Assembly: GCA_013365365.1 (NCBI GenBank) | Contig: JABVXU010000152.1 | Span: forward strand, 50,495 to 114,494 | From: Cruorifilaria tuberocauda | Lineage: Eukaryota > Nematoda > Chromadorea > Rhabditida > Onchocercidae | DNA length: 64,000 nt | Reading direction: 5' to 3' | Shown: positions 26,366-64,000 of the stretch, piece by piece | Numbering within the stretch: the first letter of the stretch is position 1 | Layout of the letters: every line of letters begins with the position of its first letter | The notes under the pieces: model-generated | Database searches by the model: none | Told to the model about the DNA's origin: nothing | Seen by the model: only the letters and a program-made list of their open reading frames with translations | Made by a program: the position numbers and the translations under genes

Positions 26366-26405
26366 TATAAATAAGAGATCTCTCTCTCTCTCTCTCTCTC
26401 TCTCT
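26329..26405. promoter_or_regulatory. TATA-like box between GA and TC tracts (candidate promoter)
   Basis: A GAGAGAGAGA run ends at 26340, TATAAATA lies at 26366-26373, and a pure TC tract of about 27 bases runs 26379-26405. The GA and TC tracts are complementary and could pair or form triplex DNA. A TATA box followed by a pyrimidine tract fits a core promoter reading rightward toward titin, but no start site is shown by the sequence itself. Confidence 0.3.
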
Positions 26406-26589
26406 AGCACATATTTAATGATGTTAACATTCTCAAACATGTAGACATGATAAATATCGGGAAAGATTTTGCACAAATTTAATTGAATTAAAAGATTGAA
26501 AAACATAGAAAAAAACATGAAGGAAGATTGTAGGAAGAAGTTAAGAAAGATGATGAAAAAGAATCAAGAGATTGTATTTTCAGCAACTG

Positions 26590-26915
26590 AAGTTAGAAGC
26601 CAAGAGAGATAGATGATTGTAGGTGCAGACAGAGTTCGGGAAGTTGTTATCAGTTAGCAGGAAGAGCAGCAACATCAGTTCACATCTGATCCAATCCATC
26701 AGTGTACATCTATCACTTCACACTAACTTAGCCGACTCCTCGAACTAGCACAGTGCCCCTCTAAAGAAGATATTCCAAATTTCTGCATTTTGGAATATTT
26801 TGGAATATTCGAGAAGAGAAAAACAAACCACGAAAGGGTGATATTGGTGATAGTGACGATTTTCCGTGACCAATTGGAGAGGGGTACTGTTCAACGGAAT
26901 TTTCACAAATTTCAC
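26590..26915 (+). other. Candidate non-coding first exon of titin
   Basis: This stretch is less AT-rich than its surroundings and ends at a strong donor, TTTCAC|GTAAGT (26915/26916). No frame with coding character crosses it. It could be a 5' UTR exon of the downstream titin gene, spliced over about 3 kb to an acceptor near 29947 or 30160. This is inference from the donor and composition only. Confidence 0.25.
26793..26815. promoter_or_regulatory. Heat-shock-element match, five units (one imperfect)
   Basis: The sequence GAATATTCGAGAA at 26803-26815 is a perfect GAAnnTTCnnGAA element. It is preceded in register by GAA at 26793 and TTT at 26798, giving five contiguous units with one mismatch. 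It lies inside an inverted repeat (ATATTCCAAA at about 26770 with TTTGGAATAT downstream). Function is inferred from the HSF1 consensus. Confidence 0.45.
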
Positions 26916-27220
26916 GTAAGTTTTCCTTTCTTCCAAACCTTTTCCTCTCTTTTTATAAATCATTTCGTAAAACTTTAATTCCTATTATCTTTCTTTGTCA
27001 CACTTATCAGGTTATAATGCAAATTTGATACAAATCGTACTATTTATTTCTTTGGAAAAAAATCAATTTGAAATTATTTTTATCTTAGAAAGAGTAAATT
27101 TAAGTAAAAGTAATGATAAGTTATTATAGAGAGAGTGAGGTATGATAGGTAAATAATTTTCCATTCCTGCTTATTTCTCCACATTTTGCTTCATATTTTC
27201 TCGTCTTATTCATCTTCAAC

Positions 27221-27256
27221 AAATAAACAAACAAACAAATAAACAAGTAAACAAAC
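27221..27256. repeat. AAAC/AAAT tetranucleotide microsatellite
   Basis: Imperfect array of AAAC and AAAT units (AAATAAACAAACAAACAAAT and onward). Simple-sequence repeat in intergenic DNA. Confidence 0.85.
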
Positions 27257-33900: not shown

Positions 33901-36900
33901 TACAAGGTAGAGGACGAGCATCTTCGATGAGTAAAATGGTTGATAATTATGAAGAAAGTAGCTATTATCAACGATCAACAAGCTTACCAAGACAAATGGA
34001 TCATCCATATGAATTCAAGAAAGGAAGGGAAATGATTCGAACATGTGGTGACGGTGCGTTTCTTCTTCATGAAGGAAACTTTTACTAAAGATAACTTCCG
34101 TTTTAATTTCTCTCCGACCAGTGATAGGATCAATGGACGGGGAAGTAAAGTTTCAATTGTAAATAACTGTATAAAACGAAAGAAGAATATTGCACATATT
34201 TGCTATATCATGTTTAAATAATTCAATAAATAATTATTGAAATTTAAAATTAGCAGAATTGAAAGAAAAATTAAATGATTCGCTTAATGTAGTAAATGTT
34301 TCATTGATTTTAATATATTCTTTGCATAGGTTAATTGAATTATGAGAAAATTAAAATGAACTACTACTTTAACTTGTAATTAATTAATTTTATGAAACTC
34401 AATTTCCCACGTTGAAAATGACGTGCATCTTTTCTGTTAACAAAATTTGCATGCATTTTTAACTGAAAAAAGAATTAAAAATTCATTTCATTTTATTTGT
34501 GCACAAAAATTTTGCATTTTTTTCTTTTGCTTTTTTAAAAAAGCTTTGAAAAATATGTCATTTTAAGAATAATTTGAAAAATTTTTTCATCATTCTATTT
34601 GTTGCTTTACTTTCTTCTCTGTTATATTTCCTCGTCTTTTTGTTTTTTCTTTTCCTTTTATTTTGCAAAAACAATTGTTTAGACACGAATCAATTGCAAC
34701 AACAACAACAACAACAACAGCGACAACGATCAAGAGAGCTTGTTGATGTAGAAGAAGAACAATTAGAAGCAGTGAAACGTCGACGTTATAGTGAAACGAT
34801 ACCTCAAAAACCAGTTTTTATTAATAAACTACCAGTAAATGTTATGGTAGGTCCTGATGAAGATTTGGTGCTCAGTATTCAATTTAAAGCAGATGCAAAA
34901 ACAGATGTGAAATGGAGTGTAAATGGTTTTGAACTGAAAAATTCAAAGAAAGTTACAATAATCAATGAGAAAGATCATTCGACACTTATCTGTCGACCAC
35001 CAATTCGCTATGGACGTTATAGTATCACAATAAATAATGAATATGGTAGAAGTGATCAAACTACACGAGTGAGTTATGCTGAGAGAAAACAATATCAAGA
35101 ATCCAATGGAATCACAGAACATCCGGTATCTGCTTATACTACCACTACACTATCTGATGGATGGGAATTAGTCGATGAGCAAAAACGGTCTAGCAAATTG
35201 GTAGATTCATTTGAAACGGTTAAATATACGGAAGCAGTTCGACCAGCTACAGAAGGACATGAAGCACTACTCATTCCATGTGATCAAACAGCCATTCCAC
35301 AACAATCATTTTATTCTTCTACGTATATCGTAAGTGAAGAAGGTAGAGAAGGAAGAAATGGAATGAGTTATAAAGCTCCAACAGATCTAGCACAACCATT
35401 ACCAACACCAATTATACCTGTAATCCATGAACCGGTAATAGGAATGAACGCTTCTGTAGTTCCTGAAGCATTGCATTCAATTCCTTATGTAGAGAAACGA
35501 TACGAAGAAATCACAAGTGGTATATCGAGAACTATTTGTGAACCGTTTAAACCAGTTGAACCAATGGAACAAAGATCTGAGGAAGCTATTCGTGGGGAAA
35601 GCGAAGTTACGATTCATGGAGTACAATCTCCAAAATTACAACCACAAAGAGAAATTGAGGAGCATGAAATTATCGGAAAGAAAACATTTCGCGTTCCAGT
35701 ACAACGCGTCATGGAACCTATTCCAAAACATCCATCCATTTTGAAACAACCTGAGCCAGAAATTCGTCTCAAAGCAGATGAAAAGCTTGTATTGGAATCT
35801 AAGGTTGATTCATTCCCACCATCTCAGTTCAAATGGTATCAAAATAATTTTGAAGTACGACCATCACCATCTGTGATTATTGAGAGTCCAGCATTAAATG
35901 AAAGTCGAGCTACATTTCTGAAGCCAGTTAGTGGTACATATAGAATGGTAGCTTCCAATACCCATGGTTCTTGTAGCAGTACAACACGTGTGGTTACTGA
36001 AGTCACCGAAGTCACCGAAGAATCTGGCGTTCCTATTGTTAGGACAATGCCGGAAAAGCATGAACCAAAGTATCACCTTATAAAGAAATCTTATACAGGG
36101 AAACGAAATGATTTACCAAAAGCGCCACGAATTGTGGAAGGTTTCGCTCCGGTTCTTAAAATCTCCAATAATGAACCATTGGTGTTACGTGTTACCGCAG
36201 ATGCAATACCGGAAGCGGAATTCCGTTGGTTGTTGAATAATTTTGAAGTAAGAACAAATCAAACAGTCACTATTCAACGTCTCGAACCAAACGTTTCACA
36301 AGCTACATTTCATAGTCCGATAAGTGGACGCTACGAAGTGATAGCTACAAATTCATTGGGTCAAGATTCTTGTTCTGGGAAAATAATTCTGAATTATGAA
36401 GAAGAAGTTCAAATCATTCCTATTAAGCCGGTTGAGAAGCCAACTGTTCCGAAAATTCCCATATTTATCAAACCATTACCAGGAGAAACACAGTTACACT
36501 CTGATGAACGAGAATTCCGCCTTTCCGTATCAGTACATGGCGAGAAACCGATTACATTCCGCTGGTTTGCTGATGGCAGTCTTCTCTCAAACAGTATTGA
36601 GCATCAAATGATTAACGATTCGGAAAATAGTACATTAGTTGTGCGGAAAGAAATTGAATGTGATGTTGATTATGCAGTTGAAGTTTCTAATGCTTACGGA
36701 GCAGCTTGGTCGGAAACGACGGTAATACCGTTACTGTCAACAACATCTTTAATGGGTACAGATTCACTGGAAGGTTCACTACTAGAAGTAGACGATGCTG
36801 AACGATGTTCTCCACGTTATACAATCGTATTAATGGATAATGATTTGCAACAAAATGATGAATTTACCGCACGTGTAGCTATCAACGCGGAATCTAGCCC

Positions 36901-39900
36901 ATGTGAGTTTATCTGGATGCTTAATGGACGTGATATCCGTACAATTCCTGGATTTCGTGTTGAATCCACATTATATGAATCTATTCTTTACATCAAATCA
37001 GCCTTATCAAAACATTCTGGCGAATTGTCGGTTATAGCTAGCAACAAATATGGTACTGCTAAATCAGCAGCTAAAATCACCGTTCACCCATGTTAGTTTC
37101 TAGATTTCAATTAATTAACTAATTTTCTAACTTCATTTTGAAAAAATTGAAATTCTTTCTTTATAGCATAGATATGCGCTTGATTTCTCATACTGATATT
37201 AAGAACTAACATCTATTATTCTTGAGTAACCGAATAATATATCTACCTGAAAGTTTTGAGTTATGCATTACTCTGATGAATTGCAAGATTTACTGTAAAT
37301 CAACAGATACTATAATTCTGTTCATATACTAAAAAATCTTATTAACAACGATTTTCTTCAAAAATATTAACAGTAATTTAAGGAGAGATGCGCGGTATTC
37401 TAAATTTCCGACGTTTTAAAAGCATGTTATTATAATTATCACCCATGAAAAGCCCCTTAATCCTTAACCCATATTATCAATTATCTTTTATTTTGCTTTC
37501 AAATTCGGAAATTTGGAATCAAAATAAAAAGTAGTTTATCAGTAAAACTGGAATTCAAATTCATTGATTGAACTGATCATGAAACGCATGTTCCATAATT
37601 TTCAGTATGTGAAGAATCGTATGAATTCATTTCGGAAGCAGAAACTATACCAGCTGAACGGCCACCACAAATTGTTTCACCTTTACAACCTTCCGTTTTT
37701 CGATCGGGTAGGTCATTTCCGAGATTTTCTTTAATTCTAGATATTATAATATACTAGAAGAGTAAGGGTTACAAGGTTGATCTTTCAATCTTTCAATAAT
37801 CGGCAGGATTTTGAAACTAACGTTAATACTTTCGGTGGTATAATAAAATATAAGCGATTTACGAGTTCGCCTTTTCTCGTTCATTAATCTATAGAAAGAT
37901 TCATGAAATTTGACACGTAGAATGTGTAGGTGAATCACTGCAATTACGTTGTTCTGTTGATGGTTTACCACAACCGGAGGTATTCTGGACCAAGGATGGC
38001 ATTCCTGTCGATAGTGGGACGGTAGGAAAAGAATTCATCGTTGTTCAATATCCGGATGATAGATATGAACTAATTAAACCAAAATGTGCACCTGAAGATG
38101 CTGGTTTATATCAGTTAACAGCTCGTAATATCCATGGTACCACGAATACCTCAGCTTATATTCTTATTGAAAGTAAGTAAATGAATAGTTTAGCTAAGAG
38201 AAATTTTTTTTGTTAAAGTTTAATTATTTATTTTTTACTTTTCTATTGCTATAAAATTATCGTTTCAGAGAGAGAAATAATAGAAGCAACAACAATGGAA
38301 ACGGTAAAAATTTTTAACTTTCAATTAAAAGACTCATAGAAAATTTATAAATTCTTGAAAATTTGTTTAATGAATTCCTCACTGAATTTGTAGAATACAA
38401 ACATTTTGCTTCTAATTATAATTTAATAATTTAGTGAATTCGTTTAATTGCCATACTAATGATATTTAGTTAAAACTTAAAATTCCAACTAACCTATATG
38501 TTTAGGAAAATAAAATTCAAATGATTGATCAAGCACTATCAAAACCACGATTCAGTGAGATAATATCGAAACAGTATGAACATGATATGATTGTGAGCTG
38601 TAAAGTGATAAGTGATACACCAGTTGTGGTGTCCTGGTACAAAGATGGACAATGTCTTTATCAGACGTATAAATATCGCATGGATAAATTATCTGACAAT
38701 ACTTATACACTAACAATATGCAATGTGGAGAAGTGGGATGAAGGTATAAATTGTCTAATATGATTATACAAGTGAATTATCAATGATAAATTCAAATGAA
38801 GAAAATAAGATTCGATAGATGAATAACGGAATCAGGTGGTCAAATCATTTAAATAGATGAAAATTTTAATGATACTGAATTTTTATAAATAAATTAAAAT
38901 ATTGTTCTATTTTTTTTATTCATTTATTTTGTTAGCATGCAATTATTTTGCACTATCATAAAACAATAGAATTTTGTTAGTATTATGAAACTTCTATGAA
39001 CTGCTACTTTTTATTCCAGGTCCATACATTTGTCGTGTTGAAAATGCATACGGTAGCTCAGATATGAGTATTTATGTCCGACCTTCGGTAAGAACTCGAG
39101 AAATAAGCAAGGAAATACTGGTTGAAGAAAGTGATAGTGAAGTAGTTGGATTACAAGATGATACGGCTTATATGAAGAAAGTATGCTAACTTTACATATT
39201 TTTTAGTTATTTAAATTAATTCTAAGGAATACAAATAGAAGAAAGTAAACGTTTGAAAGAAGACTAAAGTTAATTAAACGGTTTGAAAGAACAATTAAAC
39301 TTATAATAAAATAAAAAGAATTCATGGAGAAAAAGATAGGAAGTTTAAAATAATTGCGTTAATTTTTTGTAAAATTCCATCAAAGTTGTAATTGAAATTA
39401 CGCATACGCATTACTATTCGTTGAGAAATTTGGAATATATTTTTCAGGATTATATCGATACAACAGTTAAAGTATTGGTAGAACCTGAAGTAAGTGGTAG
39501 TCAAGAAGTGTACAGTCATACTGCTGAATTACGAAAAACCGAAGGTTTACTTATTTTAAATATTTTCAGTATATATGAATCACATTCCTATAAATAATAG
39601 TTCATATAAATCGATTTTAGCAGAATATAAATTGCTGGTGAAAGTTGCGGAAATTGTTGCAAGCAAACTAGTTGCTAAAGTTGTAATCGATGAAGCAATA
39701 CAAATTGCTTTAAAACGAATGAATGTAGAAATACAGTCTAGTGAAGAGGAGGAATTTGAAACAATCCATGAGCAACATCCATGCCCACCAAGGTATTACT
39801 TATATAAAAATATTTTCAGTTTACTACTTATTATTGAGATATTTTAAGTATATTACTTATTACAAAGATATTTTAAGAGATATTTTATTATAAAGATATT

Positions 39901-51900: not shown

Positions 51901-54900
51901 CTACCGGAAATGAATTCTTATCTGAATTGATATCGAGAATAATTAATTACTGAAAATTCATTTCATACTAAAGCTATATGATATACATTTAAAAGATATT
52001 TTTGAAAAAAATTTTTCTCCAAAAAATTTTACTGAAAAATAAGGAATGGCAAGCGAATATATGAAAGATTGGGTATATGAAAGATCTGATTTCTGCTAAC
52101 ATTAATCTATTAAATTTATAGTACGACCGATATTTTGTTATAAAATATTAAATTACCTCAGCGATAGAATGATTCAATGTTGTAAAGCTTTACTTTCCAT
52201 ATTTTTTACCTAGTAAAATGCATGGAATGAATAATTCTGCTGATTAGGAAGCTTTTTTCACAGGAAAACAACGCCTTTCGATTTTTCTTTTTGCAAAATA
52301 CTTTTCATTTATTTTCAAAAATTGTTGCTGTCTTTCAAATTGATAGATCTATTCATGACATAATATAGCTCAAAAAAGGAAGTTTCATGTACAATTAGCT
52401 ATTCATATAGCTAATAGCTTCCATCTAATTAGGCGTTCTTGGAATTCTTATGCTATTTTTAGGTGATTTTTGACATCGTCTCTATATTTCCATCGAAAAA
52501 TAATTGAATTCGACCAAAAAAATTGGTCGTTTTTGAAACATGTTGTTGTTTGATTATTGTCTGATAATCAGTATCATATTTGTTATTAAGTTATATTTCG
52601 CTCATTCTTGCAACATTTTCGTTCGTTTCAAGTAAAACACTTATCATTGTTTTTCTTATATTACTACATCGTTATCATCATCATCATCATTATCATAATA
52701 ACGATCATTACTTTTTCTCTTCAAATACAGTCAGCTTTTGTTGAAAGAAACATACAATTAACAATGCTTGTACAACATTACGCTCTCCCCATTCTATCTG
52801 GTGATTGAATTTTTCGAATAATTAAATTCATATGAGCCAACCTCAAAAATTGTAATAAGGTAAGAGTGGTATTGGTTAATTATCAAATCAAATTTTAACT
52901 ATTTCCACATCTTCTAAAATTTTATCGTTAATCGAAAAACGAGGAAGAGAGAAACGAAATGCATTTCATGATAGATTTTAAAGAATTTGACAATTTTTTC
53001 AGATCTGATTCAAATTTTAAACATTATGTTTCACAGTGAAGTTCTCGTAATAACGAATCAAAGATTTTGATCAAATACAAAGCCAGTGGTTGACAAGAAA
53101 ATCTTTCAGAGATATAAAAAATTAATGAGAATAAACAAAAGCACCACCGAAAAATTAAACGACCTTAAGAAATCTTAAGAGAAAAATGAGAGAAAAGTTC
53201 ACGTTGGGAACATTGCAAAAACCACGTATAATACCATATCATTAAATTGTTTCACTTGATTTGCTCATCCGTTAGAATATCGTTAACTTCTAAATAAATT
53301 TAAAAGTACAATTTTAGTGGACATGATAAAGTCGTATTCAATACAGTTAGTGCAGTTTTAACCATGATATTACGTGTGGTATACATGGCTCAGTTTTCAG
53401 ATTATTGAAAAAAAATCAACTGATTTCTGAATCTTCTGGATACTTGAAAATTTAATATTCACAAAATTTTGAAAAAAATCTTAATTTAAAAAAAAAATCT
53501 GTATTTAATAGGAATGCTGTAATTCTATATTAATAGAGCTAATCAAAAATAAAGGAGGAAAAAATTCGTGAATTTTATGATGGAAACTGATGGTAAGATG
53601 TAATTAAGGATACACTTAAGGGAAAAGATTTTTTGAAATTCGTCAGCATCAAATGTTGATAGCTACTTGTTGTCTTAAAGAACTTTGAATAATATTAATA
53701 GCTGAAGGTAATACAATTTTTCTTTTGAAATTTACTCAAATTTTATTATTTATCCATTTTACACGGAAAGATGAATAATCTTTCTATCAAATTTCTTTCC
53801 CATAGAGAAAGGAAATTTATTTTAAAACATTCCCTGTCCATCAATTGTGCATATCATTTTGAGAAAAAACAAATGCTAGCACTGTTTTTTTTTGTGGTAA
53901 AATAAGGCTAGAATATACTGATGTATGAGCTTAATCAAGAATTCGTTATAATTTCTGTTATTAGATTTCGATTGAATCAATCCATAATAATTTTAACTGA
54001 TAGTCTTTCATTATAGGAGAATATGAAAATCAAGTAACAGTGGAAGAATCGCTGGTACCAGTCGGTTCAGCTGCAACAATTCACTGTGAAACAATCACGC
54101 AACAATATTCACTGGATTGGCGTAAAGATCTACAACCTATCACGCAGAGTGAACGAATCGAACGGAAGGATACAGCTGATGGCTTTGAGCATAGCCTTAC
54201 AATTTATAGCGTTCGAAAGAGTGATGAAGGCGAATATGGTGTTGTAATTAAAGATTCATATACTGCTGTCACTAAAATAACTGTAATTGGTAAGCATTTG
54301 AAACATTAATTATTTATTATTTATTAAACGCATTTATTTACAGTTTAGTAATTTCTAAAATTGCTACTTGTAGAATAGAGAAGCGTATTTAAGGTTTTTT
54401 TTTGAAAATTTATTTTGAATGATGATGAATTATGGAAATCATAGAACAAAAAGCATGACGTTTAATTGTCTTTTTCACTAAGGAATTTCAGAATTTAGGG
54501 ATTTTATTACTAGTAATTGAATTGATCTTCTGATTATTGTGATCCGTAAACTTTGGTAATAATTGAAAATATTGGAACTTACGATTATTTCTTATTAAAG
54601 CATAAATTTTATTCTTAATTTACAGAATCACAGGAACAAATTGCCACCGAAGATTTCGACATCTCATTACATCCTACACAATCAGTAATGAATGAAGCCT
54701 TCGCTCAGTTACATGATCGTATCAGTCTTCCACAAACACAGGCTTCTTTTGAAGCTTATCAGTTATGCAACATGGAAGAATATTTTGATTTGCAATTTTC
54801 CATGCAATCGCTTGAAGTTCCAGTAGTTGTAGATGAAAAACGATCAGCATCAGTCAGCTATCTTTCAAGGGAGAAAGATATTTACATACAGCGTGAGCCT

Positions 54901-57900
54901 TCTTATGAAACTAACGCGGATTTGACTTTAATGGAAGTAACCGTCGTTGCGTGCAATTTTGTAACAACAGATGCTCGTTTTCATTTCACATCTTCCACCT
55001 CAGTTAATCGTGCTGTTGCTGAAGCTGTAGTACTAACACCGATTGCACAACAATCTATCCAAATTGATCTCAGTTCACAATTTACTGCGTTTAGAACTAG
55101 TTTTATAAAACAGTCTGGTTTACAACAATTAACTGTTGCTGCAAATATGCCGCAAAAAATTGTCGAAAAATTAGGAATAAAATTAGGTGATAGGTGGATG
55201 AAATTAGACGTGATATTGTTATCACCAATGCGAACTGAATCAGCGGATATTACGAACAAAATTCCTAGCATAATAACATTAGAAATGAACTTTCCTCCAC
55301 TAATATTTGAAAGATGCGACAAGGACTTTACATTTGATAAAGAATCTGAACGAGAATATTTCGACGCAGTGGTACTTACAAAATCAATCACGTATCCAGA
55401 AAGGATCAGAAGACAGTTTAGCATGGTTGTTATTTGGTTGGAATTCATAGCTGTTTATAAAGTACCGCAAGTTTTTGATACCATAATCAAAATTGACGTT
55501 ACTCAAAAGGAAACATTTCATCTACAATGCAAATCTTCTAAAGCAAATGCAGTTGATGAAATTTTCACAGTTTGTAGACCCGTTCCACAACAAGATGCTG
55601 CAGTAACATTACTGGAAGTTCCCTCTGTAGCAACAAGTCGAAATTATATTGATTCAGTTTCATCTTTGGAAATAATTTTAAGATCACGTATTGATCAAAA
55701 TCTGTTTATAAACAAGGAAGTACCACTGATTCAAAGAGAAATGATCAATAGGCAGCTGATGCCTTCAATGCATGAAGTGATTCCAGTAACTTACAGTTTC
55801 TCGAGGCCTGCACAAAATGAAAATTTAGAAATGAAAGTATTTGTGAAATCGCTAAAGCACTATGAAATGAGTCAACGTAATTTCACTGATAGCGTCACAA
55901 AATTTGAACTAAAGTTTTGGTCGCAGACCGAACGTAACTTTTCCGTCACTGATAACTTCCGAACGAGTGAATTGGATCGAGTGAGTGCAAGATTTTTCGG
56001 TTCAACTGTGGAGTATTTCGATGTATCAACAGCTTTCAATATTCAACCGAAAATGGATACAGTGATAGCTACGCTACCGATAAAGACAACAAAAACTGTT
56101 CGAGAAGTAAGTCGGCTGTATTCAGATACGCTTGTAACTCTTACTTCAGAATGCTGCTCTCAGATGTCTCGGGAATCTCGTGCAGATGCTATTTTACTGA
56201 AACCACGGATAGATGTATGCATTGCAAATTTCAAAGCTTCAACTTTTGAAGATCTCTGTGTTATCATAGCTTTTAAGATAGAGTCTCAGGCAAACGGTGC
56301 TAATGTAACGTTAGTAACGAGAGCACCAACAATCACTGGAAGATCTATCTTTACGTTTTCCGATGATTTGATTCAAGAGAGAGCAGAATTCCGATCGCAA
56401 CTTCAGCGTAGCTTGGAAGTAGAAATGGAAATTTCCACTGCTCGAAAAGATAATTTGATTATGAACATTAAAAGTGCAGAATTTAATGAAAGAAATATTG
56501 TAGTTATTATTGAGATGCGACCGGAGAAGGAAGGTGTAGAATTCGTACTACTAACTCCACTTCCAGCAGTGATCGAAGAGATCAGTCAATCATTTTCGGA
56601 CACTGTCGTAAACCTAATTACTGAATTACATATGCAAAATGATTGCCATACAGATAATGATATTCTAATTGCTCGGACATGCGCACTTCAAATGTATCTG
56701 AAAGCTTCGAAAGAAGAAAATATCACTATACAGGCAAGATTTTGTGTCCAACATGAAATCGAAAATATCATAGCTACTTTACTAACACGAGCACCGACAA
56801 TTGTTGAAAGAAATGAACGCAAATTTTCAGACAATTTAGTGAATTTCGTAACTGAAATGTGGTCGCAAATTTGTCGAGAAGCTTTTGCAACTGCTGATAT
56901 TTATATTGCTAGAAATGATAAGATGCAGAAACAATTAAAGGCTTCAGCTACAGAAGATGCGCATACTTCAATAGCATTTGAAGGATGCTCTGAAATAGAA
57001 GAAATCGAAGTGACTTTATCAGAGCTAATTCGGGCTGATACTTACAAATTAAATCGCTTCTTTGCATATAAAACTGTTGATTTCATAGCTGCATTATTGT
57101 TTCAAACTCAAAACAGCTTCTACGCTGATATAAATATACCAATTAAACGAATGGATAGCAATCAGTTACATTTAAAAACTTCTGGTGAAGAATGTCTAAA
57201 TGTGTTAATGAGTTTTGAAATGAAATCACAAATACGAAATACTGCAATAGCACTGCTTGCTCGAGCAGAAGCGATTGTAGAAGAGACAAATAGAACTTTC
57301 TCATCAAACTTCACAGAAATAATTTCTGAAATATTTTCAAGAATGAATAGAGATTTGCATGCATATTTTGAAGCAATGATTGTAGTGAATGAAACTGCAG
57401 AAACATGGATAGAAGCATCAAAGGAAGAGAATTTATGTATTGAAAAATGCTTTGAAAAGGAATTGCAAACTTATTACGCAGATGCTACAGTATTAATTAC
57501 TCAGGTGGAAAGACAGCTTACAACTATAAAAAGTGCATCTCTTGAAAACATCGAAATTTATCATTCTTTCGAGTTATGCCCAGAAGAGGAGCTGTCATCG
57601 ATTACTGTCACCTCCAAACAAATTGAAATTACGGAAAAGAGATATAGCAATGAAGTGATAAAACTTGATGTTCAATATGACTGTAGAGTTTTAAATGAAA
57701 TGATTGAAGCAGATCTCATGGAATCTGAGCCATCAGTACGGATGTCTTGTAGTTACCAAGCATACAATGAACGATCTTCCTGTTTGTTTACAAAGAGATT
57801 TATTGAAAATATCATCAATGAAGCATATGAAGGTTTCACGCAGGGTTTGGAAGAAAATATAAGTTTGATGATTGAGTTGTCTCGTAAGCCATCATCAATA

Positions 57901-60900
57901 CAATCTTCTCAAATTGATTTACGAGATATATATCAACAGAGACGAACAATCGAGGAGAATGAGGTAATTTTTAGGCATGAAAAAAACTTCTCAGTATTTA
58001 AATACTGTATTAGACGTATTTCAAGTGTGATAAGTTATGTTTTTTGAGATAACGACATTGTGGAGTCGTGTACAATTAAATGTAGAATTCTATCAACGCA
58101 TAGATGTAGCACGATCTCCACAAATAATCGATTCTACTTTTATCTTACGTGGAAATATCTGTGAAGGTTTGTTATTTACTCTTGTCACACGTTAACTTGG
58201 TTTTGCATCATTTTGCACGAAATTCGCGAAACAGATTCATTGTTTTCAATTAATGATAAGTGATAATACAGCAGATCATTTTTTCTCTCTCTTCTTCATT
58301 TCAGTATATGAAAGGGAGAAAGAATGGGAAAAATGAAAGCGGAAGTATAATGTTATTAAAAACTTTTCTTTGAGCTCTTATAATTAGAAGTCATTTAAGA
58401 GCTATTACTGAACTCTTTAAATAAATAGCCATCAATAAATCTATATTCTTTACATTTCCAGCAACGAAGCTATGATTTCAAAGCTTCATTTCCTATAATA
58501 CTTTCTTGAATTTCATTAAAGTCTTATTTTTCATTATTAACCAAAAGTTAAATGAATAGATTTTTAGTTGCACTTCCGTTTGCTTGATATTTTTGTTTAA
58601 TAGTTACGGTCTTTTTATTTAGATTAAAACTTTCTTAGCATTATTTGTGATTATAATTCAATGTTTTGTAGCACTGATTGTTTCTGAAGATTGAAATTAA
58701 AATTACAGCATGTGAAATTGTAAACCCATAATTTTTGCTAAATTAAGTTAGCATATTTCCTTTTACAAAATGCACATCGTTTTTCCTTTATTCTGACTTA
58801 TTTGTATGAGGTACAGAAATGATATTTATTTATTTTATGAAATGAATGAACTTATAAAATGCTTTCTTAGACGAATCAACCGATGAAACTAGCACATCTT
58901 CGGTTAATACAGCTCCTCAATTTGCCGAACATTTAAGTGAAATTTATGAAATCGATGAATTTGCAACTCATTATTTCAAATGCATTATTTATGGGACACC
59001 AATGCCACATGTTCGATGGTATTGTAATGGAAAAGTTATCATCCCAAACAAGTAAGATATTAAGGCTTAATATTTCAGGCTGTTTATTTAAATATTATTA
59101 TTTAAATATCATTAGTAAAGATGTTTTTTCATTTCTTTGGGAACAATAGTTCAGTAATTTTTTCAAGAGACTTTAATCCAATAAATTATCATGAGCTCCA
59201 AAATTGTTGCGTAATTATCAATAAAGTAATTAACAATACAAAATTTATTACAATAAACCAAATTTTTCGAGAACTTGGATATTATTAATTATAATTGTTG
59301 CAGTAATATAACCATAATTGCTGAAGATGGTATCTGCATATTAAAAATAAACAGCGTAGATAGAAGTTGGAATGGAAGTCTGATTTGTGAAGCAGAAAAT
59401 ATAATTGGAACAGCTTGCACACATACCATTATTCGCGTTCAAAGTATTAGCTTATTTGAATGAAACATTATTACATTATTTTTGATGCCATAAATTCAGT
59501 AATTTTCAATAATGAATGAATCTTTTGAAAAACAAAGTATTTTAAGGAATGAAAATTAGAATACCTTTACTTAAGAGCAAACTTTTATTATAGGTATTAC
59601 AGGAAAGCTAAATTTTTTTGCTTTTACTTCATTGAAATTGAATAAAGGATTTGAATAAAAATCAAAAAAGAGACATGAATTGCAAATAATTATTGATTGA
59701 ATTAGTAACACAAAACCTTTCAAAAAGAAAAAATTACAGGATCAGAGGAAAGTTCCACAAGTAGCACTTCCACTGGAGGACAAATACCTATAATTCAGCT
59801 ACCGCTTAAACGTGAAATGCATGTTACAGTAAGTATATTTAAAAAAACACTATTATAAAATAATGATGAAAATAAATAATGATTGAGTTTATTTTTTAAG
59901 CAGTTATTGTAGATTTTTTTTGGTTTTTTCTCATTTTCCAATATTTTTTCACTTATCAAAAATTATTAATTGCGCCAAAATCCTCAATCGAAAACCTCGT
60001 TGATCGGAATTTTTATAGGATTTACTTTTTTCTTCGCAAAATATTGGAATTCAAATTATTTTATTTTAAAAATCATAAACATATAAGTTTCAGAAGGGAG
60101 AAAATGTCAGACTCAAATGTATTGTGTCCGGAAATCCGTTGCCTTCAGCGCAATGGAAGCGCAATGATGTTATCATCGAAAACAATGAGTAAGATAAAAT
60201 TTAAATAGAAAGCTAAAAAGAACATAGTTGTCACTTAACTTATGCTTTAAGTTTTACAGCTAGGTTTACGATATATGAACACACACATATTACATTAATT
60301 ATCCAGTATATTTCACAACAGTAGAATAAATTATTTCTCATCTTTCAGGCATTACTCAATTATATGTGATGACGGAATCTATATTTTGCATATTTTAAAT
60401 ATCGCAGAAGAGGATAATGCAATTTTCAGTTGCACAGCAATGAATTTATTCGGTTCCACAGAAACTGACAGTAAAATAATTGTTAGAGGTAATTAAGAAT
60501 TTCTGTACTGAATTTTTGAAAGGTCATTTTGAAGAATTCCTTTCATTTAATAAGTGATATGATAGTGTGATTGGACAAAGTATATGATATCAGCAAAATT
60601 ATTTTATCAAATATTACTTTCGCATATAGATTATCCACAATATTAATATGAAATAGTAATTGATTGAAAATTAAATGAATAACAGTTACAAAAATTGAAT
60701 CAAGTAAAATTTTAATGTTTGTATATTTTTAAAAATATTTTTTTTTTAGAATTGCAATTAACAAATGCAAGTAGTTCAAAAGGGGAGGAAAGTTCGCTTA
60801 CAAGAAGCATTATGGAGGACCATACCATAGGTGAAATATCTCCCGGTTCGATATCCTCTAACGATTCATTTACTACTCAATTCGGAGAACCAAAATTCAC

Positions 60901-63900
60901 GTTACCTCTAAATGACATAAACGTACGGGAAACCGAAGAACTGCAACTTAAATGTGTTGTTACGGGTGAACCGGTACCTACAGTTCATTGGACATATAAT
61001 GGCAAGACAATTCAAGCAGACAACAGGTGAAAAGTTTTAATTCATCTTACATAATAAGCTACTAGTTTTAACTCACTCATAATTCGGATTTCTTCCTCCT
61101 CCAGTGAAGATTTTTATCGGATGGGCTCCTATTTGAGGTATATAAAGCGATAGTTCATGACGATAATGACCAAGGTTTTAATAAAGTCTCGAAAAGAATT
61201 AATATGGAGTTTGAAGTCTGTAATCTTTTTGAACCAAAATCATTTTACTTCTCCCCGGAAACTCTCTGGAATAAATTTGCCTTTTTTTCATAATATGTTA
61301 CTTATTTCCCATAATTTTGTCGCAAATGTCTGCGGATTTTTTCAAACATCTGTTTACTTAACTGTTGTCTTTTTGTTTGCTTTATCTTGAAATAGTTTCC
61401 TTCTTTGTTCATTTCCGCACCAGATTTTCAAAAAAAAGTTCAATCGCTAATAATATTTTTCAGAGATATATTTCTCGTTTATGAGGATGGCATCGCTCTG
61501 TTGAAAATCACAAAAGGTTATAAAGAAGGATTATACGTCTGTGAAGCAACAAACGGTATTGGAAATACGCAAACTCGAAGTTTTGTTCGTATATATAGTC
61601 CGGAAGTCGCACTGACAACAACAGTGAAGCAGAAAGATACGATAGAGTCAGCTGAGGCTGAAGTTTTATCAATCTCGACATCAAAATTCTGCTCAACTGT
61701 TGACATAACGGAAGAGAGAAATAAAGTAATTGATCAAGATCTGGAAGGAGAAAATTCAAGAAAAAAATTCGATAAAGAAGAAATCACTATTGATCAATAC
61801 ATTCCAGCAGGCAGACTGAATTATTTGATTGAGGCAGAAGCAGTAACAACAAGAGTTGTGAATTGCAAGCTTTTTGCTTATGCAAAACTGAGAGAGAAAT
61901 CAAAAAAATTGAAGAAGGAGAAGTTACTTAAAATAATCATTGAAGAGGAAGTTATACGTACGCGAACTTATTTAAGAGTGGTCGAACTCAGTGCAAGGCA
62001 ATTTTGGACATTTCAAGATACTGAAAGACCCCCACATTGGAGTCGAGAAGTTATTAATGAGAGAATAGAATTTGAAAAAATATTCCAAAATGATGAAATT
62101 AACGAATTTTTAGAAGATAAAGACATTATTGAACGTTATGTTCAGCTCTTAAAAGCGAAAGAATGGAAAAGCAATGAGGAATGCGAAACTCGATTTAAGT
62201 TACGTCAGACTGAAGATCCAGCAGAAACTTTAGAAGGACGACAATTAGAAATACGGAAAGAAGAAACTGGAAGTCTTACCGAGGATACTGGTGTCTTCAC
62301 AGTCGTCCACTGCACAGCAAACGCAATGCATCATGCTTTAGAAGCATTTGTGATTCTCATTATGCGTCACCGATACAAGGCAACATTTGATATTCGATCT
62401 GCTTCACATCGAATGATTGCTAGAAGTAACGAATTTGAAGCCTCTATTGAAGAATCAGTCAAGAGGCAGAAATACTTCTCCCATTCAACTTTGAAGCTAC
62501 CGCATTTTACTCAATCATTTTCTCTCTTTGAAGAAGGCTTCAATACAGGACTGCGTTGTTCTGTTTACGGTCTACCATCACCATATATTCGTATTTTGCA
62601 TAATGGATGCCCGATCCTGAGAAATAATAGGTTAGCCCAGAATAATAGAATAATGAAAGGCCTTTACTATTTATTATTGCTTGCATCAAGTACTGTCTAA
62701 TATATACTAATTACAAGATGTACAAAAGTAGAATAGTGGAATGCTTCTTTGCTTAGGAATAAAGTAAGGCTAGCAATTAGTCCGATCCTTTAAAAATTAA
62801 AGCTACGTTATTATCCATAAAATCATAGAATAAGGCAACATTTGATATTCGATTTCTATATCAGATCAGATTGCTAAAAATAGCAAATTAAAGTTTCTAC
62901 TGATTTAAGAGACAGAAATATTTCTCCCATTGAACTCTCATTTAATCACTTCCTGTCTTTAAAGAAGACAGTACTAAGAGAAACTGTTTATAATTTCGTT
63001 ATAAACAATTTTGCTTAATAAATTCATATTTTTATTGGTTTAAAACTAAGATGAGTGCAAGCTTTAAAAATGCTAATTTAATAGCCACAACATTCTGATA
63101 ATTTGATTTAGGAAATAAATTGCTTTCAGGTTCTTTCATGTAGTCTACAAAAGTGGCGTCGTCACACTGTACATGCAGCATATTCTCGAAGGACATTATA
63201 TGTGTGAAGCAATCAATGCTGTTGGACGGGCTACTACAGAATGCTATATTCGAGTCGATGAAGCATGGAGCGAAAAACAGCACAGGAAAATCCGAAGAAT
63301 ACGAGTTGAAAAAGCATCCAAAACAACGAGATCCGCAGAGAGCAGTTCTCAAAATGATGAAATCCTACCAAGCACCTCACAAACATGGGTATCTCAATTC
63401 GAATACGAAAATAATAAGCAAATCAACGAAACTTCAGAGTCAGTGGAAAATACTGGAGATAGTCTGGTCGAACATCATATCAAACTTCACGAATTATCTG
63501 AAAAAGATATGAAAGAAGTAAGGGAGACCAGAAATGATAACAAAGCTAGAACATTTAATGAAATCAGCAAACACATTTCTATCGAAAAAACACCCGATAC
63601 TACATCAACAAGCATTTCAGTGATAGAAAATATCCATAATACATCACAACGACTATTTAAATTTCCACAGGAAGATACTGATGTTTTAATTGATGGTACA
63701 AAGCCTACACCTAGCTTTGCATCGGAAGGAGTAAAGGAGATTTCAGAGGCAGTTCAAGATTCAATCCGTTCAGCAAAACAAGCAAAGAAAAAGCAGCTCG
63801 AAGAAGAAATTGCTGAAAAGACGGCTGAATTAAAGGAAGAAATTGACGAAGAAAAAACAAACAGAACTGTTCAAGAACTAAAGGAAACAGAAATCAGTGT

Positions 63901-64000
63901 ACTTCTGGAAAAACAATTCGAGCACGAAATCGTTGATGTTTCAGTTATGAGCTTAGTTTCAGAAGAAGTTCAAACCTCAACATTCTTAATAGGAGAACTG
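30239..64000 (+). CDS. ttn-1: Titin-like giant protein, 5' part of gene (3' end outside window)
   Basis: The predicted start is ATG at 30239. 42 exons join in frame to the window end: 19,164 coding bases, 6,388 residues, ending exactly at a codon boundary (GGA GAA CTG). The chain contains 19 I-set Ig domains, long charged spacers, two blocks of beta-rich repeats, and a coiled-coil stretch at the edge. No fibronectin-III or kinase domain is inside the window; in C. elegans TTN-1 (about 2 MDa) these come later. Placement right after kettin on the same strand matches the arrangement I recall for C. elegans ketn-1 and ttn-1. Expected role: sarcomeric scaffold and elastic element in the I-band. 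Twitchin is less likely because of the kettin neighbour and the absence of Fn-III modules over more than 6,000 residues. Confidence 0.88.
30741..30756. repeat. TA dinucleotide microsatellite
   Basis: Uninterrupted TA run in the first coding intron of titin (30298-30849). The rest of that intron is AT-rich and shows no other feature beyond three loose copies of GAGTAC. Confidence 0.8.
31359..32147 (+). CDS. ttn-1: Titin Ig t1 (exons 31359-31510, 31718-31849, 32027-32147)
   Basis: The Ig begins [20 protein letters not shown] and contains [19 protein letters not shown], the core Trp, then [20 protein letters not shown] and [14 protein letters not shown]. The strand-F cysteine is present; strand B has Val. 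Upstream residues in the first exon ([20 protein letters not shown]) form a leader to the domain. Confidence 0.85.
32458..32544 (+). CDS. ttn-1: Titin short linker exon
   Basis: Peptide [20 protein letters not shown] and MEIIDKENI, acidic, between Ig t1 and t2. It fits phase 1 on both sides (acceptor TTTTCAG, donor ATCC|GTAAAT). Confidence 0.75.
32669..33487 (+). CDS. ttn-1: Titin Ig t2 (exons 32669-32780, 33306-33487)
   Basis: Reads [40 protein letters not shown], then [20 protein letters not shown] and [13 protein letters not shown]. No canonical Ig cysteines. The intron (525 bases) cuts a Lys codon (AA|A) just before strand C. Confidence 0.85.
33657..34047 (+). CDS. ttn-1: Titin linker exons (33657-33734, 33886-34047)
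   Basis: Non-Ig spacer rich in Ser, Tyr, Gln and Met, for example [19 protein letters not shown] and [20 protein letters not shown]. Ends ACATGTG|GTGACG; a donor 6 bases downstream is also phase-compatible. The following intron (34048-34682) is T-rich with no other feature. Confidence 0.72.
34683..37091 (+). CDS. ttn-1: Titin large exon with Igs t3-t7
   Basis: A single 2,409-base exon carries five whole Igs. t3 starts [17 protein letters not shown] (about 34802), t4 [20 protein letters not shown] (35722), t5 [17 protein letters not shown] (36113), t6 [20 protein letters not shown] (36445) and t7 [19 protein letters not shown] (36805). t3-t6 share an F/V-K/R-W-xx-N/D-G core and RY-x-V-x-N-xxG ending but lack the canonical strand-F cysteine. 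Between t3 and t4 lies a 200-residue spacer rich in Pro, Glu and Ser (for example [19 protein letters not shown]). The upstream open frame reaches 34574, but its hydrophobic start is intron translated from the T-rich acceptor region. Confidence 0.88.
34691..34720. repeat. CAA microsatellite encoding polyglutamine
   Basis: CAA-rich run translating to [12 protein letters not shown] within the first 15 residues after the acceptor. Length is likely polymorphic between isolates. Confidence 0.9.
37606..38172 (+). CDS. ttn-1: Titin Ig t8 (exons 37606-37707, 37921-38172)
   Basis: Reads [79 protein letters not shown]. Strand B has Cys; strand F has Leu instead. The chain ends YILIE and leads into a microexon. 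Confidence 0.87.
38269..38303 (+). CDS. ttn-1: Titin 35-base microexon
   Basis: Acceptor CGTTTCAG, donor ACG|GTAAAA, peptide [12 protein letters not shown]. It converts phase 1 to phase 0 and is needed to keep frame between t8 and t9. Confidence 0.7.
38506..39180 (+). CDS. ttn-1: Titin Ig t9 (exons 38506-38743, 39020-39180)
   Basis: Reads [75 protein letters not shown]. Both canonical cysteines are present. The second exon continues into an acidic spacer ([20 protein letters not shown]). Confidence 0.88.
39448..39792 (+). CDS. ttn-1: Titin linker exons (39448-39544, 39621-39792)
   Basis: The first exon gives [19 protein letters not shown] after an in-frame GTAAGT decoy (39490) that would break the frame if used. 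The second is probably helical: [20 protein letters not shown] and [19 protein letters not shown]. The intron between them is 76 bases, among the shortest here. The second exon ends at the start of Ig t10 (CPPR). Confidence 0.72.
39835..39905. repeat. AGATATTTTAAG short tandem copies
   Basis: Several copies of AGATATTTTAAG or close variants lie in this intronic stretch, spaced about 20-36 bases apart. Looks like local replication slippage. Confidence 0.6.
40015..40538 (+). CDS. ttn-1: Titin Ig t10 (exons 40015-40143, 40387-40538)
   Basis: Reads [76 protein letters not shown]. The intron falls after the C-C' turn inside a Glu codon (GA|A), the same place as in t11 and t16-t19. Strand F has Cys, strand B has His. 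Confidence 0.88.
40756..43658 (+). CDS. ttn-1: Titin non-Ig segment, first block of beta-rich repeats (seven exons)
   Basis: Exons are 40756-41288, 41674-41769, 41954-42259, 42527-42685, 42895-43035, 43169-43270 and 43538-43658. There are no Ig signatures. The chain is a run of units with a shared strand-like start, such as [59 protein letters not shown] and [19 protein letters not shown], and a core [17 protein letters not shown] that resembles the second block's [13 protein letters not shown]. The donor at 43270 appears to be GC (CAG|GCGAGA). The last exon is a Ser/Pro spacer ([20 protein letters not shown]). Fold and function unknown. Confidence 0.75.
43430..43477. repeat. Strong 22-bp intronic hairpin
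   Basis: The arm at 43430-43451 (starts CCTACAATGAAATTGATC) pairs with 43456-43477 at 20 of 22 positions across a 4-base loop. It lies in the intron that follows the proposed GC donor. Confidence 0.85.
43934..44616 (+). CDS. ttn-1: Titin Ig t11 (exons 43934-44081, 44477-44616)
   Basis: Reads [81 protein letters not shown]. Both canonical cysteines are present. The intron is phase 2 after the C-C' turn, and the second exon is exactly 140 bases, as in t16 and t17. Confidence 0.9.
44617..45684. other. Titin intron, nothing recognised
   Basis: A 1.07-kb T-rich intron before the giant exon. Open frames here are hydrophobic products of T-rich DNA. No repeat or RNA feature recognised. Confidence 0.6.
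45685..51123 (+). CDS. ttn-1: Titin giant exon: charged spacer plus Igs t12 and t13
   Basis: 5,439 bases open without interruption, about 1,813 residues. It begins with an Asn-rich low-complexity stretch ([18 protein letters not shown]). A probable helical region around 47400-48190 contains [19 protein letters not shown] and [19 protein letters not shown] basic cluster follows ([20 protein letters not shown], 48190-48271), then a Pro/Arg/Ser-rich part with PVRPPR and PIPPFR, both fitting the SH3-ligand pattern PxxPxR (48619-48722). Long acidic Ser-rich sequence leads to two Igs: t12 ([20 protein letters not shown], about 50560) and t13 ([20 protein letters not shown], about 50859). Both have a strand-B Cys but no strand-F Cys (VYSVRV, YYAFLG). 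The spacer has no family I recognise. Confidence 0.88.
51419..51754 (+). CDS. ttn-1: Titin Ig t14
   Basis: A single-exon Ig with an acidic lead ([20 protein letters not shown]), then [50 protein letters not shown] and [15 protein letters not shown]. It is shorter than most I-set Igs between strand F and G. Cys in strand B; the strand-F Cys is offset by two residues (SYSIC). Confidence 0.85.
51755..54016. other. Longest titin intron, ATC microsatellite only
   Basis: 2.26 kb of AT-rich sequence. It contains an imperfect ATC repeat at about 52673-52694 and a 13-base near-duplicate (ATATATGAAAGAT, GTATATGAAAGAT) near 52060. No exon fits the phase-1 boundary on both sides. Confidence 0.6.
54017..54289 (+). 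CDS. ttn-1: Titin Ig t15
   Basis: A single-exon Ig very like t14: [59 protein letters not shown] and [15 protein letters not shown]. Strand B has Cys, strand F has Val. Similar length and phase to t14 suggest duplication of a one-exon Ig. Confidence 0.87.
54626..57963 (+). CDS. ttn-1: Titin exon of tandem 79-residue beta-rich repeats
   Basis: 3,338 bases, 1,113 residues, no Ig. From about 55417 to 57760 the protein repeats with a fixed period. The aromatic anchor of the FSDTLV-like motif starts at 55645, 55882, 56119, 56356, 56593, 56824, 57061 and 57298, intervals of 237 bases (once 231). A second anchor, KAS-xx-EEN ([45 protein letters not shown]), lies 114 bases after each of the last six. 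Between them run strand-like stretches such as ADIYIARND and [13 protein letters not shown]. After the last full unit an unpaired half-unit of 39 residues occurs. Each unit therefore consists of two related halves of about 38 and 41 residues. Known C. elegans TTN-1 regions include short-repeat families named PEVT and BLUE box; whether this is one of them I cannot tell. Confidence 0.85.
58049..58166 (+). CDS. ttn-1: Titin exon continuing the repeat block
   Basis: Peptide [20 protein letters not shown] then [19 protein letters not shown]. Joined to the previous exon it restores a repeat half ([15 protein letters not shown] resembles [14 protein letters not shown]). The 85-base intron has an unusual acceptor, TTTTTTGAG, with G at -3; no other acceptor keeps frame. 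Confidence 0.65.
58167..58870. other. Titin intron, nothing recognised
   Basis: 704 bases, AT-rich, including a GA/TC-rich stretch near 58290-58330. No open frame with exon-like character. Confidence 0.55.
58871..59443 (+). CDS. ttn-1: Titin Ig t16 (exons 58871-59051, 59304-59443)
   Basis: Reads [80 protein letters not shown]. Both canonical cysteines are present. The second exon is exactly 140 bases with phase 2 in and phase 1 out. Confidence 0.9.
59740..60488 (+). CDS. ttn-1: Titin Ig t17 (exons 59740-59828, 60094-60188, 60349-60488)
   Basis: A Ser/Thr spacer ([19 protein letters not shown]) leads to [58 protein letters not shown] and [12 protein letters not shown]. An extra intron splits the A-B region (ACA|GTAAGT). 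The last exon is again 140 bases. Both cysteines present. Confidence 0.9.
60750..61599 (+). CDS. ttn-1: Titin Ig t18 (exon 60750-61026 and start of 61464-62630)
   Basis: Reads [83 protein letters not shown]. Both cysteines present. The upstream part of the first exon is a Ser/Thr spacer ([20 protein letters not shown]). The intron (61027-61463) is phase 2 at the same Ig position as in t11, t16 and t17. Confidence 0.9.
61600..62495 (+). CDS. ttn-1: Titin charged linker between Igs t18 and t19
   Basis: About 300 residues in the middle of exon 61464-62630. Highly charged, partly helical ([39 protein letters not shown]). It contains strand-like pieces resembling the repeat family ([32 protein letters not shown]). 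The piece from 62377 on has a decayed copy in the next intron. Confidence 0.82.
62496..63250 (+). CDS. ttn-1: Titin Ig t19 (end of exon 61464-62630 and start of exon 63130)
   Basis: Reads [80 protein letters not shown]. Both cysteines are kept, but the nearly invariant strand-C Trp is Ile (YIRILHNG), unusual for an I-set Ig. The intron 62631-63129 follows the shared phase-2 position. Confidence 0.88.
62832..63005 (+). pseudogene. Decayed copy of the preceding exon inside an intron
   Basis: From 62832 the intron repeats exon sequence beginning at 62377: the first 22 bases, AAGGCAACATTTGATATTCG and on, match exactly. Further blocks match with substitutions (GATTGCTA, AGACAGAAATATTTCTCCCATT against AGGCAGAAATACTTCTCCCATT, TCTTTAAAGAAG against TCTTTGAAGAAG). 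Stops in frame make it non-coding. It is a relic of a tandem duplication covering the linker end and start of Ig t19. Confidence 0.8.
63130..64000 (+). CDS. ttn-1: Titin exon running off the window, charged with coiled-coil
   Basis: 871 bases open to the last base. After finishing Ig t19 it gives a basic patch ([19 protein letters not shown]), a Ser/Glu/Asn-rich spacer ([19 protein letters not shown]) and a probable coiled coil around 63756-63900 ([20 protein letters not shown]). C. elegans TTN-1 is known for coiled-coil segments, supporting the assignment. The exon has no donor before the window end that is clearly preferred. Confidence 0.85.

What the first reader, a model, noticed from the sequence alone, without database searches (positions are those of the whole stretch)
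55417..57760. Regular 79-residue titin repeat built from two unequal half-units
Eight anchor codons of an FSDTLV-like motif start at 55645, 55882, 56119, 56356, 56593, 56824, 57061 and 57298: spacing 237 bases in six of seven intervals and 231 in one. A second anchor (K-A/T/S-S/A-xx-E-E/D-N) sits at 56233, 56470, 56701, 56938, 57175 and 57412, always 114 bases after the first and 123 before the next. An extra half-unit (117 bases) occurs at 57529. The strict spacing despite strong sequence divergence suggests a structural constraint, such as a beta solenoid or strung hairpins. It has no Ig, Fn-III or PEVK character. It may be a new elastic or binding module of nematode titin, or a form of the TTN-1 BLUE-box region.
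Basis: partly seen in the sequence, partly recalled or inferred. Interest (0 to 1): 0.85.

Follow-up and report, generated by a model that had tools for sequence, protein, structure and literature searches.

The report
Length-locked repeat array in filarial titin
A giant muscle protein of filarial worms carries about ten copies of a 79-residue repeat that matches no domain in the libraries searched; its letters change fast between species while its length hardly changes, so it is probably a folded mechanical module of unknown shape.

Summary
The repeat is real. It lies in one 3.3-kb exon (54626-57963) of the window species' ttn-1 (titin/Sallimus-like) gene. Eight regular units are confirmed (offset 79, z 11.5; leave-one-out E 0.0029 to 9.9e-19). 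Two weaker units lie upstream, perhaps a third. One of the six listed A-to-B spacings is 108, not 114. No Ig, Fn-III, other Pfam or PDB match is credible. All ten relatives found carry the array: seven named ones are filarial, three unnamed. Units are positional orthologues. Sequence evolves fast (59-68% identity against 91-92% for the adjacent Ig, four relatives), yet indels are eightfold rarer per substitution than in upstream non-Ig linker of the same proteins (8 per 1103 against 123 per 2036). The only length differences above 6 residues are 79, 39 and 40: one unit or half a unit. This favours an ordered, length-constrained module over a disordered spring. The fold is unknown: both AlphaFold runs failed (pLDDT 27.6, 26.4). 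Homology of the halves is only hinted at. C. elegans TTN-1 repeats could not be compared.

The parts
54017..54290 (+). Ig (I-set) exon directly upstream of the array exon
   Evidence: Pfam I-set E 1.1e-10; splice phase agrees with relative P0009, '...TVIESQEQ...'
54626..57963 (+). single array exon of ttn-1; read in frame from 54628 it gives 1112 aa
   Evidence: open frame of 1142 aa; splice sites ttacag|AA and GAG|gtaatt read by eye; orthologous in 10 relatives
54946..55176 (+). possible further degenerate unit (tentative, boundaries approximate)
   Evidence: joint hhalign match over this and the next unit E 1.2e-7; alone only E 0.038
   Evidence: E 0.0022 with an HMM built without it; hhalign E 7.7e-6 (slightly circular, see full report); positional counterpart in P0003, P0005, P0007, P0010, P0011
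   Evidence: E 0.00046 with an HMM built without it; hhalign E 3.1e-8 (slightly circular); counterpart in P0007
55639..55875 (+). unit u338, 79 aa
   Evidence: leave-one-out E 0.0029
55876..56112 (+). unit u417, 79 aa
   Evidence: leave-one-out E 7.8e-10
56113..56349 (+). unit u496, 79 aa
   Evidence: leave-one-out E 1.6e-15
56350..56586 (+). unit u575, 79 aa
   Evidence: leave-one-out E 2.4e-8
56587..56817 (+). unit u654, 77 aa (two residues short, in the first half)
   Evidence: leave-one-out E 1.7e-16
56818..57054 (+). unit u731, 79 aa
   Evidence: leave-one-out E 9.9e-19
57055..57291 (+). unit u810, 79 aa
   Evidence: leave-one-out E 2.5e-12
   Evidence: leave-one-out E 6.8e-8 for u889; 39-residue difference, junction after residue 937
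58872..59460 (+). following Ig domain, split over two exons
   Evidence: reading resembles relative P0009 at about residues 5459-5553 by eye; no domain scan was run on it

Best explanation
This is an old tandem array of about ten 79-residue modules, of no family found in the libraries searched, inside the titin (TTN-1) of filarial nematodes. The modules are probably folded and joined end to end in fixed register, giving a rod- or ribbon-like segment of defined length between Ig domains of the I-band titin strand. Its job is most likely mechanical: a length-setting or reversibly unfolding spacer, whose surface residues are free to change while the number of residues per module is not. Shown: the array, its gene, positional orthology among the sampled filariae, indel intolerance, length differences in whole- or half-module steps. 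Inferred: that it folds, that it bears load, that it lies in the I-band.
For: Repeat and boundaries. Spacing between neighbouring regular units over 11 sequences is 79 in 52 of 68 intervals, 76-78 in 15 and 151 in one. Gene: P0012 is Bm6219 isoform k; [quoted passage not shown] the poly-Q peptide which that paper names in Bm6219 also stands in window ORF 34550-37096. Constraint: 8 indels per 1103 substitutions in the array against 123 per 2036 in upstream non-Ig linker of the same four proteins, P0009-P0012. In four further relatives the array has 0 per 289 (P0003), 2 per 287 (P0002), 6 per 323 (P0006) and 7 per 487 (P0007, partly alignment artefact). A decayed genomic copy of part of the array has 6 indels over 868 aligned bases. 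Length differences above 6 residues are 79, 39 and 40 only. Charge-hydropathy: +0.051 on the folded side, against -0.034 for the charged tail of P0009. TTN-1 as a Sallimus homologue spanning the I-band: PMC9886281, 12 passages seen.
Against: Both AlphaFold predictions failed (pLDDT 27.6 and 26.4), which disorder would also produce. No Pfam family or solved structure supports a fold. Codon positions 1+2 and 3 differ from the decayed copy about equally (109 of 898 against 60 of 446, p 0.49), so purifying selection on residues could not be shown that way. Downstream non-Ig linker is closer to the array in one relative (2 indels per 84 substitutions, P0006; 2 per 64, 5 per 67 and 4 per 69 in P0009-P0011). 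No localisation or mechanical data were found for this segment.
Confidence: 0.5

Rival explanations
1. The array is an intrinsically disordered elastic spring (PEVK/PEVT-like entropic spring), and the period is only a relic of duplication.
For: C. elegans TTN-1 is reported to have extensive modular disordered segments (only the title of that paper seen, in reference lists). AlphaFold confidence is very low. Sequence evolves fast.
Against: Indels are about eight times rarer per substitution than in upstream non-Ig linker of the same four proteins. P+E+V+K is 23.5% and proline 2.1%, against 45.5% P+E+V+K in the charged tail of P0009. Hydrophobic residues are 36%. Charge-hydropathy is on the folded side.
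Confidence: 0.2
2. The 39-40 residue half-unit is the true structural quantum (a two-strand hairpin-like module), fixed as a 79-residue pair; the array is a ribbon or solenoid of about 21 half-modules.
For: Two separate length differences of 39 and 40 residues, whose junctions imply nearly the same register (position 50 replaced by 10, position 63 by 24). Offset 39 ranks first of 39 in log-odds profile self-similarity (z 1.98) and has autocorrelation z 3.0 in P0001. Beta-type hydropathy alternation z 2.4.
Against: hhalign of half against half gives only P 0.09-0.10 (eight column-permuted controls 0.17-0.65). In P0007, the most regular array, offsets 37-42 give z 2.1 or less. In the BLOSUM version of the profile score offset 39 is tenth. 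Gap placement depends on one MAFFT alignment. The 40-aa gap in Brugia and Wuchereria comes from annotated proteins and could be a mis-called 120-base intron.
Confidence: 0.25
3. Each 79-residue unit is one independent globular domain of a known fold, too diverged for sequence search ('beads on a string').
For: 79 residues is a usual small-domain size (general knowledge); charge-hydropathy and indel intolerance suit a folded domain.
Against: 19 three-unit pieces gave only scattered unrelated Pfam families (best E 0.0013, a viral family hit by 4 of 19); no PDB match at E 10; 39- and 40-residue losses would cut such a domain in half; glycine is 0.9%, low for a globular domain (general knowledge).
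Confidence: 0.2
4. The units are ordinary diverged Ig or Fn-III domains.
For: They sit among Ig domains in a titin gene.
Against: No Ig or Fn-III family among the 22 listed for 19 three-unit pieces at E 10 (HMMER filters drop most matches above about 0.1), while three of four other exon pieces of the same gene score I-set at E 1e-10 to 1e-36; the fourth, 61396-62697, reached only E 0.0065.
Confidence: 0.03

Closest known systems
C. elegans TTN-1 tandem repeats, including a satellite with a 117-base (39-codon) repeat in ttn-1 (PMC6210790, passages seen)
   Same: Same gene by name; tandem repeats in a titin; 39 codons is half of the 79-residue unit.
   Different: That satellite is recognised as a DNA tandem repeat 14.9 kb long in the newer assembly; the window units average 22% amino-acid identity.
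PEVK-type springs of titin and Sallimus
   Same: Non-Ig stretch between Ig domains of a titin-like protein.
   Different: P+E+V+K 23.5%, proline 2.1%, folded-side charge-hydropathy.
Nebulin-type actin-binding super-repeats (recalled)
   Same: Strictly spaced short modules in a giant muscle protein.
   Different: Recalled nebulin modules are about 35 residues with an actin-binding motif; no nebulin family appeared in the Pfam scan. Recall, not a full test.
Ig/Fn-III modules of titin
   Same: Tandem modules of similar size in the same protein.
   Different: No detectable similarity.

Membership tests
Ig I-set / Fn-III domain | match to the Pfam profile | tested here: not met
   no Ig or Fn-III match in P0001, P0007 or P0003 or in 19 three-unit pieces; Ig exons of the same gene match
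PEVK/PEVT-type elastic segment | P, E, V, K (T) richness and low hydrophobicity | tested here: not met
   P+E+V+K 23.5%, P 2.1%, hydrophobic 36.4%
TTN-1 (nematode titin, Sallimus-like) | orthology with a gene named ttn-1 | tested here: met
   P0012 = B. malayi Bm6219 isoform k carries the array; Bm6219 is called Bma-ttn-1
TTN-1 (nematode titin, Sallimus-like) | protein kinase and Fn-III part (recalled) | not tested
   the contig ends with the window; no kinase search was made
published C. elegans TTN-1 repeat classes (PEVT, CEEEI, AAPLE, BLUE, DispRep; recalled) | sequence similarity to a class consensus | not testable with these tools
   paper not held; no C. elegans protein returned by three protein searches
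beta solenoid | regular coils stacked in three dimensions | tested here: inconclusive
   AlphaFold pLDDT 27.6 and 26.4
any solved structure | sequence or profile match in PDB | tested here: not met
   one hit at E 1.7 with the exon profile; none at E 10 with the three-unit profile

The most novel reading that the evidence does not exclude
The array is a new protein architecture: a continuous ribbon or solenoid whose quantum is a 39-40 residue half-module, set in register pairs of 79. It would act as a length-coded, reversibly unfolding strut in filarial titin, and may be the ordered ancestor or cousin of the 39-codon repeats of C. elegans TTN-1.
Probability: 0.15. Interest if true: 0.75.

Novelty: new variant of a known kind. 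Interest (0 to 1): 0.5.

Why it matters
If it folds, it is a further kind of titin building block beside Ig/Fn-III beads and disordered springs, with a measurable signature: substitutions tolerated, indels not, length changes in half-module steps. It would give a way to ask how a worm sets passive length and stiffness in obliquely striated muscle. It is also a segment so far seen only in filariae, in a protein that one paper lists among filarial excretory-secretory proteins (PMC6220944, passages seen).

Tried and rejected
Rejected: Ig or Fn-III identity; PEVK-type spring; homology to neighbouring non-Ig exons of the same gene, where profile comparison stayed within the column-shuffled null; further units elsewhere in the window (best other match E 0.054 in six frames).

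Led nowhere: AlphaFold on three units with 19 rows and on the whole exon with 11 rows; the models were too poor for a fold search, so none was run. A four-unit alignment with overlapping shifts was discarded because MAFFT aligned shared sequence out of register. PDB profile searches and NCBIfam. Nine literature searches, of which only the listings were seen (10-20 rows each, fewer where fewer exist): no listed title or abstract start names a 79-residue titin repeat. Codon-position comparison with the decayed copy was inconclusive.

Weak points in my counts. The hhalign test is slightly circular: the 74-unit profile holds one unit of P0007 (residue 280) that is the counterpart of u262; the tests are free of this. 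In one search the rows of 87-96 given as one indel for the Ig exon are artefacts (a second Ig was caught) and were not used; so is the 56 in the P0007 row, where end effects blur the 39 and 79 gaps. The main indel comparison uses the four relatives with both regions (P0009-P0012); these share history, so rows are not independent. For P0005 (partial protein) the end of the array was left out of the indel count. The first 183 residues of the exon are not indel-poor (2-3 indels per 40-78 substitutions in eight relatives), so the tentative third upstream unit lies partly in a stretch without the length lock. Protein searches scored only part of their candidates (7994 and 7984 kept; 913).

Full report
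What was checked. The finding lies in a single open frame at 54619-58047. Splice signals and relative P0009 place the exon at 54626-57963; read from 54628 it gives 1112 residues (P0001). Autocorrelation of the exon product peaks at offset 79 (z 11.5), 235 (z 8.4) and 158 (z 6.7) against 300 shuffles. Each of the eight units is recognised by an HMM of the other seven (E 0.0029 to 9.9e-19). An HMM of ten units of relative P0007 alone finds nine stretches of the window exon at E 7.6e-6 or better, while 100 shuffled exons reach at most 5.4 bits. Units are on average 22.1% identical to each other (10-37%), against a mean of 15.7% and a 95th percentile of 20.9% for shuffled units.

The A-to-B spacing is 114 bases in five of the six pairs listed and 108 in one (56593 to 56701). 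The array starts earlier than reported, with weaker units. An 18-unit HMM without them finds u184 and u262 in the window at E 0.0022 and 0.00046, and their counterparts in P0007 at 1.6e-5 and 3e-11; an HMM of the eight window units finds the P0007 counterparts at 1.2e-4 and 3.5e-7. Profile comparison of residues 1-337 over 11 sequences gives E 1.6e-13 for the pair and a weak third, with the slight circularity told in Tried and rejected. Against this: offset 79 is not among the 15 best in residues 1-340 alone, and the P0007-only HMM sees u262 of the window at E 0.67 and u184 not at all under E 1. The extra half-unit at the end is the site where P0007 has 39 more residues.

Relatives. Three protein searches gave ten relatives in all, and all ten carry the array. 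Seven are named: Wuchereria bancrofti, Onchocerca flexuosa, Litomosoides sigmodontis, Cercopithifilaria johnstoni, Elaeophora elaphi, Loa loa, Brugia malayi; the genera of all seven are in Onchocercidae. Three are unnamed (P0002, P0003, P0007). No other nematode appeared, but the search needs shared five-letter words and scored a capped list in two of three cases, so absence elsewhere is not shown. [quoted passage not shown] PMC9886281 (12 passages seen) describes C. elegans TTN-1 as a Sallimus homologue that spans the I-band.

How it evolves. Each of ten window units finds its own positional counterpart as best match in Loa loa, in Elaeophora and in P0003 (10 of 10 each), and nine of ten do so in Onchocerca flexuosa, whose protein is partial. 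In P0007 nine of ten keep the same rank and the tenth shifts by one, because P0007 has one more unit there. So the units were distinct before these species parted and have not been homogenised. Over 11 sequences, 52 of 68 intervals between neighbouring regular units are exactly 79, 15 are 76-78 and one is 151. Against the four relatives that carry both regions (P0009-P0012), the array (residues 184-972) has 8 indels for 1103 substitutions, whereas upstream non-Ig linker of the same proteins has 123 for 2036, at similar identity (59-68% against 62-70%). Four more relatives give 0 per 289, 2 per 287, 6 per 323 and 7 per 487 in the array. Other controls in the same call are less extreme: downstream linker 2 per 64, 5 per 67, 4 per 69 and 2 per 84 in four relatives; the first 183 residues of the array exon 2-3 indels per 40-78 substitutions in eight. 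The adjoining Ig exon is 91-92% identical in P0009-P0012 and 88% in P0006. Length differences above 6 residues inside the array are 79 and 39 (P0007 against the window) and 40 (Brugia and Wuchereria against the window). In unit coordinates the 39-residue gap joins position 49 to position 10 of the next unit, and the 40-residue gap joins 62 to 24, so both imply nearly the same equivalence of the two halves. Gap placement rests on one alignment, and the 40-residue case rests on annotated proteins and might be a false intron.

Are the halves homologous? Evidence is mixed. Offset 39 ranks first among 39 offsets in log-odds self-similarity of the unit profile (z 1.98) but tenth in the BLOSUM version; hhalign of half against half gives P 0.09-0.10, eight column-permuted controls 0.17-0.65; in the most regular array, P0007, offsets 37-42 reach only z 2.1. 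I treat half-unit equivalence as a hypothesis.

Fold. Composition is hydrophobic (36%) with 0.9% glycine and 2.1% proline in residues 338-1004, on the folded side of the charge-hydropathy line. The mean hydropathy profile alternates with a beta-like period (z 2.4, alpha-like z 0.3), but residue propensities read as a mixture of strand and helix. AlphaFold gave pLDDT 27.6 for three units, with a few strands, and 26.4 for the whole exon, mostly helix where anything; the two disagree, neither supports a fold, and no fold search was run. Pfam, PDB and NCBIfam gave no credible match.

What I think it does. An ordered, end-to-end array that tolerates substitutions but not length change is most simply a mechanical spacer: its geometry matters, its surface less. 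Placement in the I-band follows from what is reported for TTN-1 and from flanking Ig domains; it is inferred, not measured.

Relation to known TTN-1 repeats. PMC6210790 (passages seen) reports three satellites in C. elegans ttn-1 with 24-, 117- and 42-base repeats; 117 bases are 39 codons, half of 79. From recall only, Forbes et al. 2010 describe five classes of 30-51 residues, mostly disordered; that paper was not held. Length alone suggests a possible link to a 39-residue class; composition argues against it. Only a direct comparison can decide.

A broken copy. Elsewhere in the same genome (C1010, about 25.8-29.2 kb, minus strand) lies a partial duplicate of window 52588-56223 at 76-84% DNA identity, with the intron kept, stops in frame and 168 window bases (55164-55331) without a match. 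It differs from the window exon at 109 of 898 codon positions 1+2 and 60 of 446 positions 3 (p 0.49), so it does not by itself demonstrate selection on residues.

Verdict. It is an undescribed repeat family as far as the libraries searched and the nine literature listings show, within a known giant muscle protein. Its fold and mechanics are open.

Noticed in passing
own genome G000:C1010, about 25757-29184 (L016), from window 52588-56223: Decayed 3.6-kb partial duplicate of ttn-1 DNA (Ig exon, intron and first part of the array exon) with in-frame stops and small indels, 76-84% identical to the window.
   Followed up: partly
P0009 (Cercopithifilaria johnstoni) residues 6200-7239; similar acidic sequence, by eye, at window 63119-64000: A second, highly charged tandem repeat of 72 residues (period z 42.5) downstream of the 79-residue array in the same protein.
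   Followed up: partly
window 34550-37096: Exon with a poly-glutamine run (QQQQQQQQR) before Ig domains that look kettin-like (label recalled); the same peptide is reported in Bm6219 by PMC6220944 (passages seen), which calls that protein and its Onchocerca relative excretory-secretory proteins.
   Followed up: no
P0005 (Onchocerca flexuosa) residue 988 onward; P0007 residues 908-986: O. flexuosa has a unit best matched by P0007's unit 908 that the window species, Loa, Elaeophora and P0003 lack, so unit number varies within filariae in a way that may not follow the species tree.
   Followed up: no
P0007: Unnamed relative (41% identical, 1260 aa) with the most regular array (period 79 z 19.0); its species is unknown and could tell how old the array is.
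   Followed up: no
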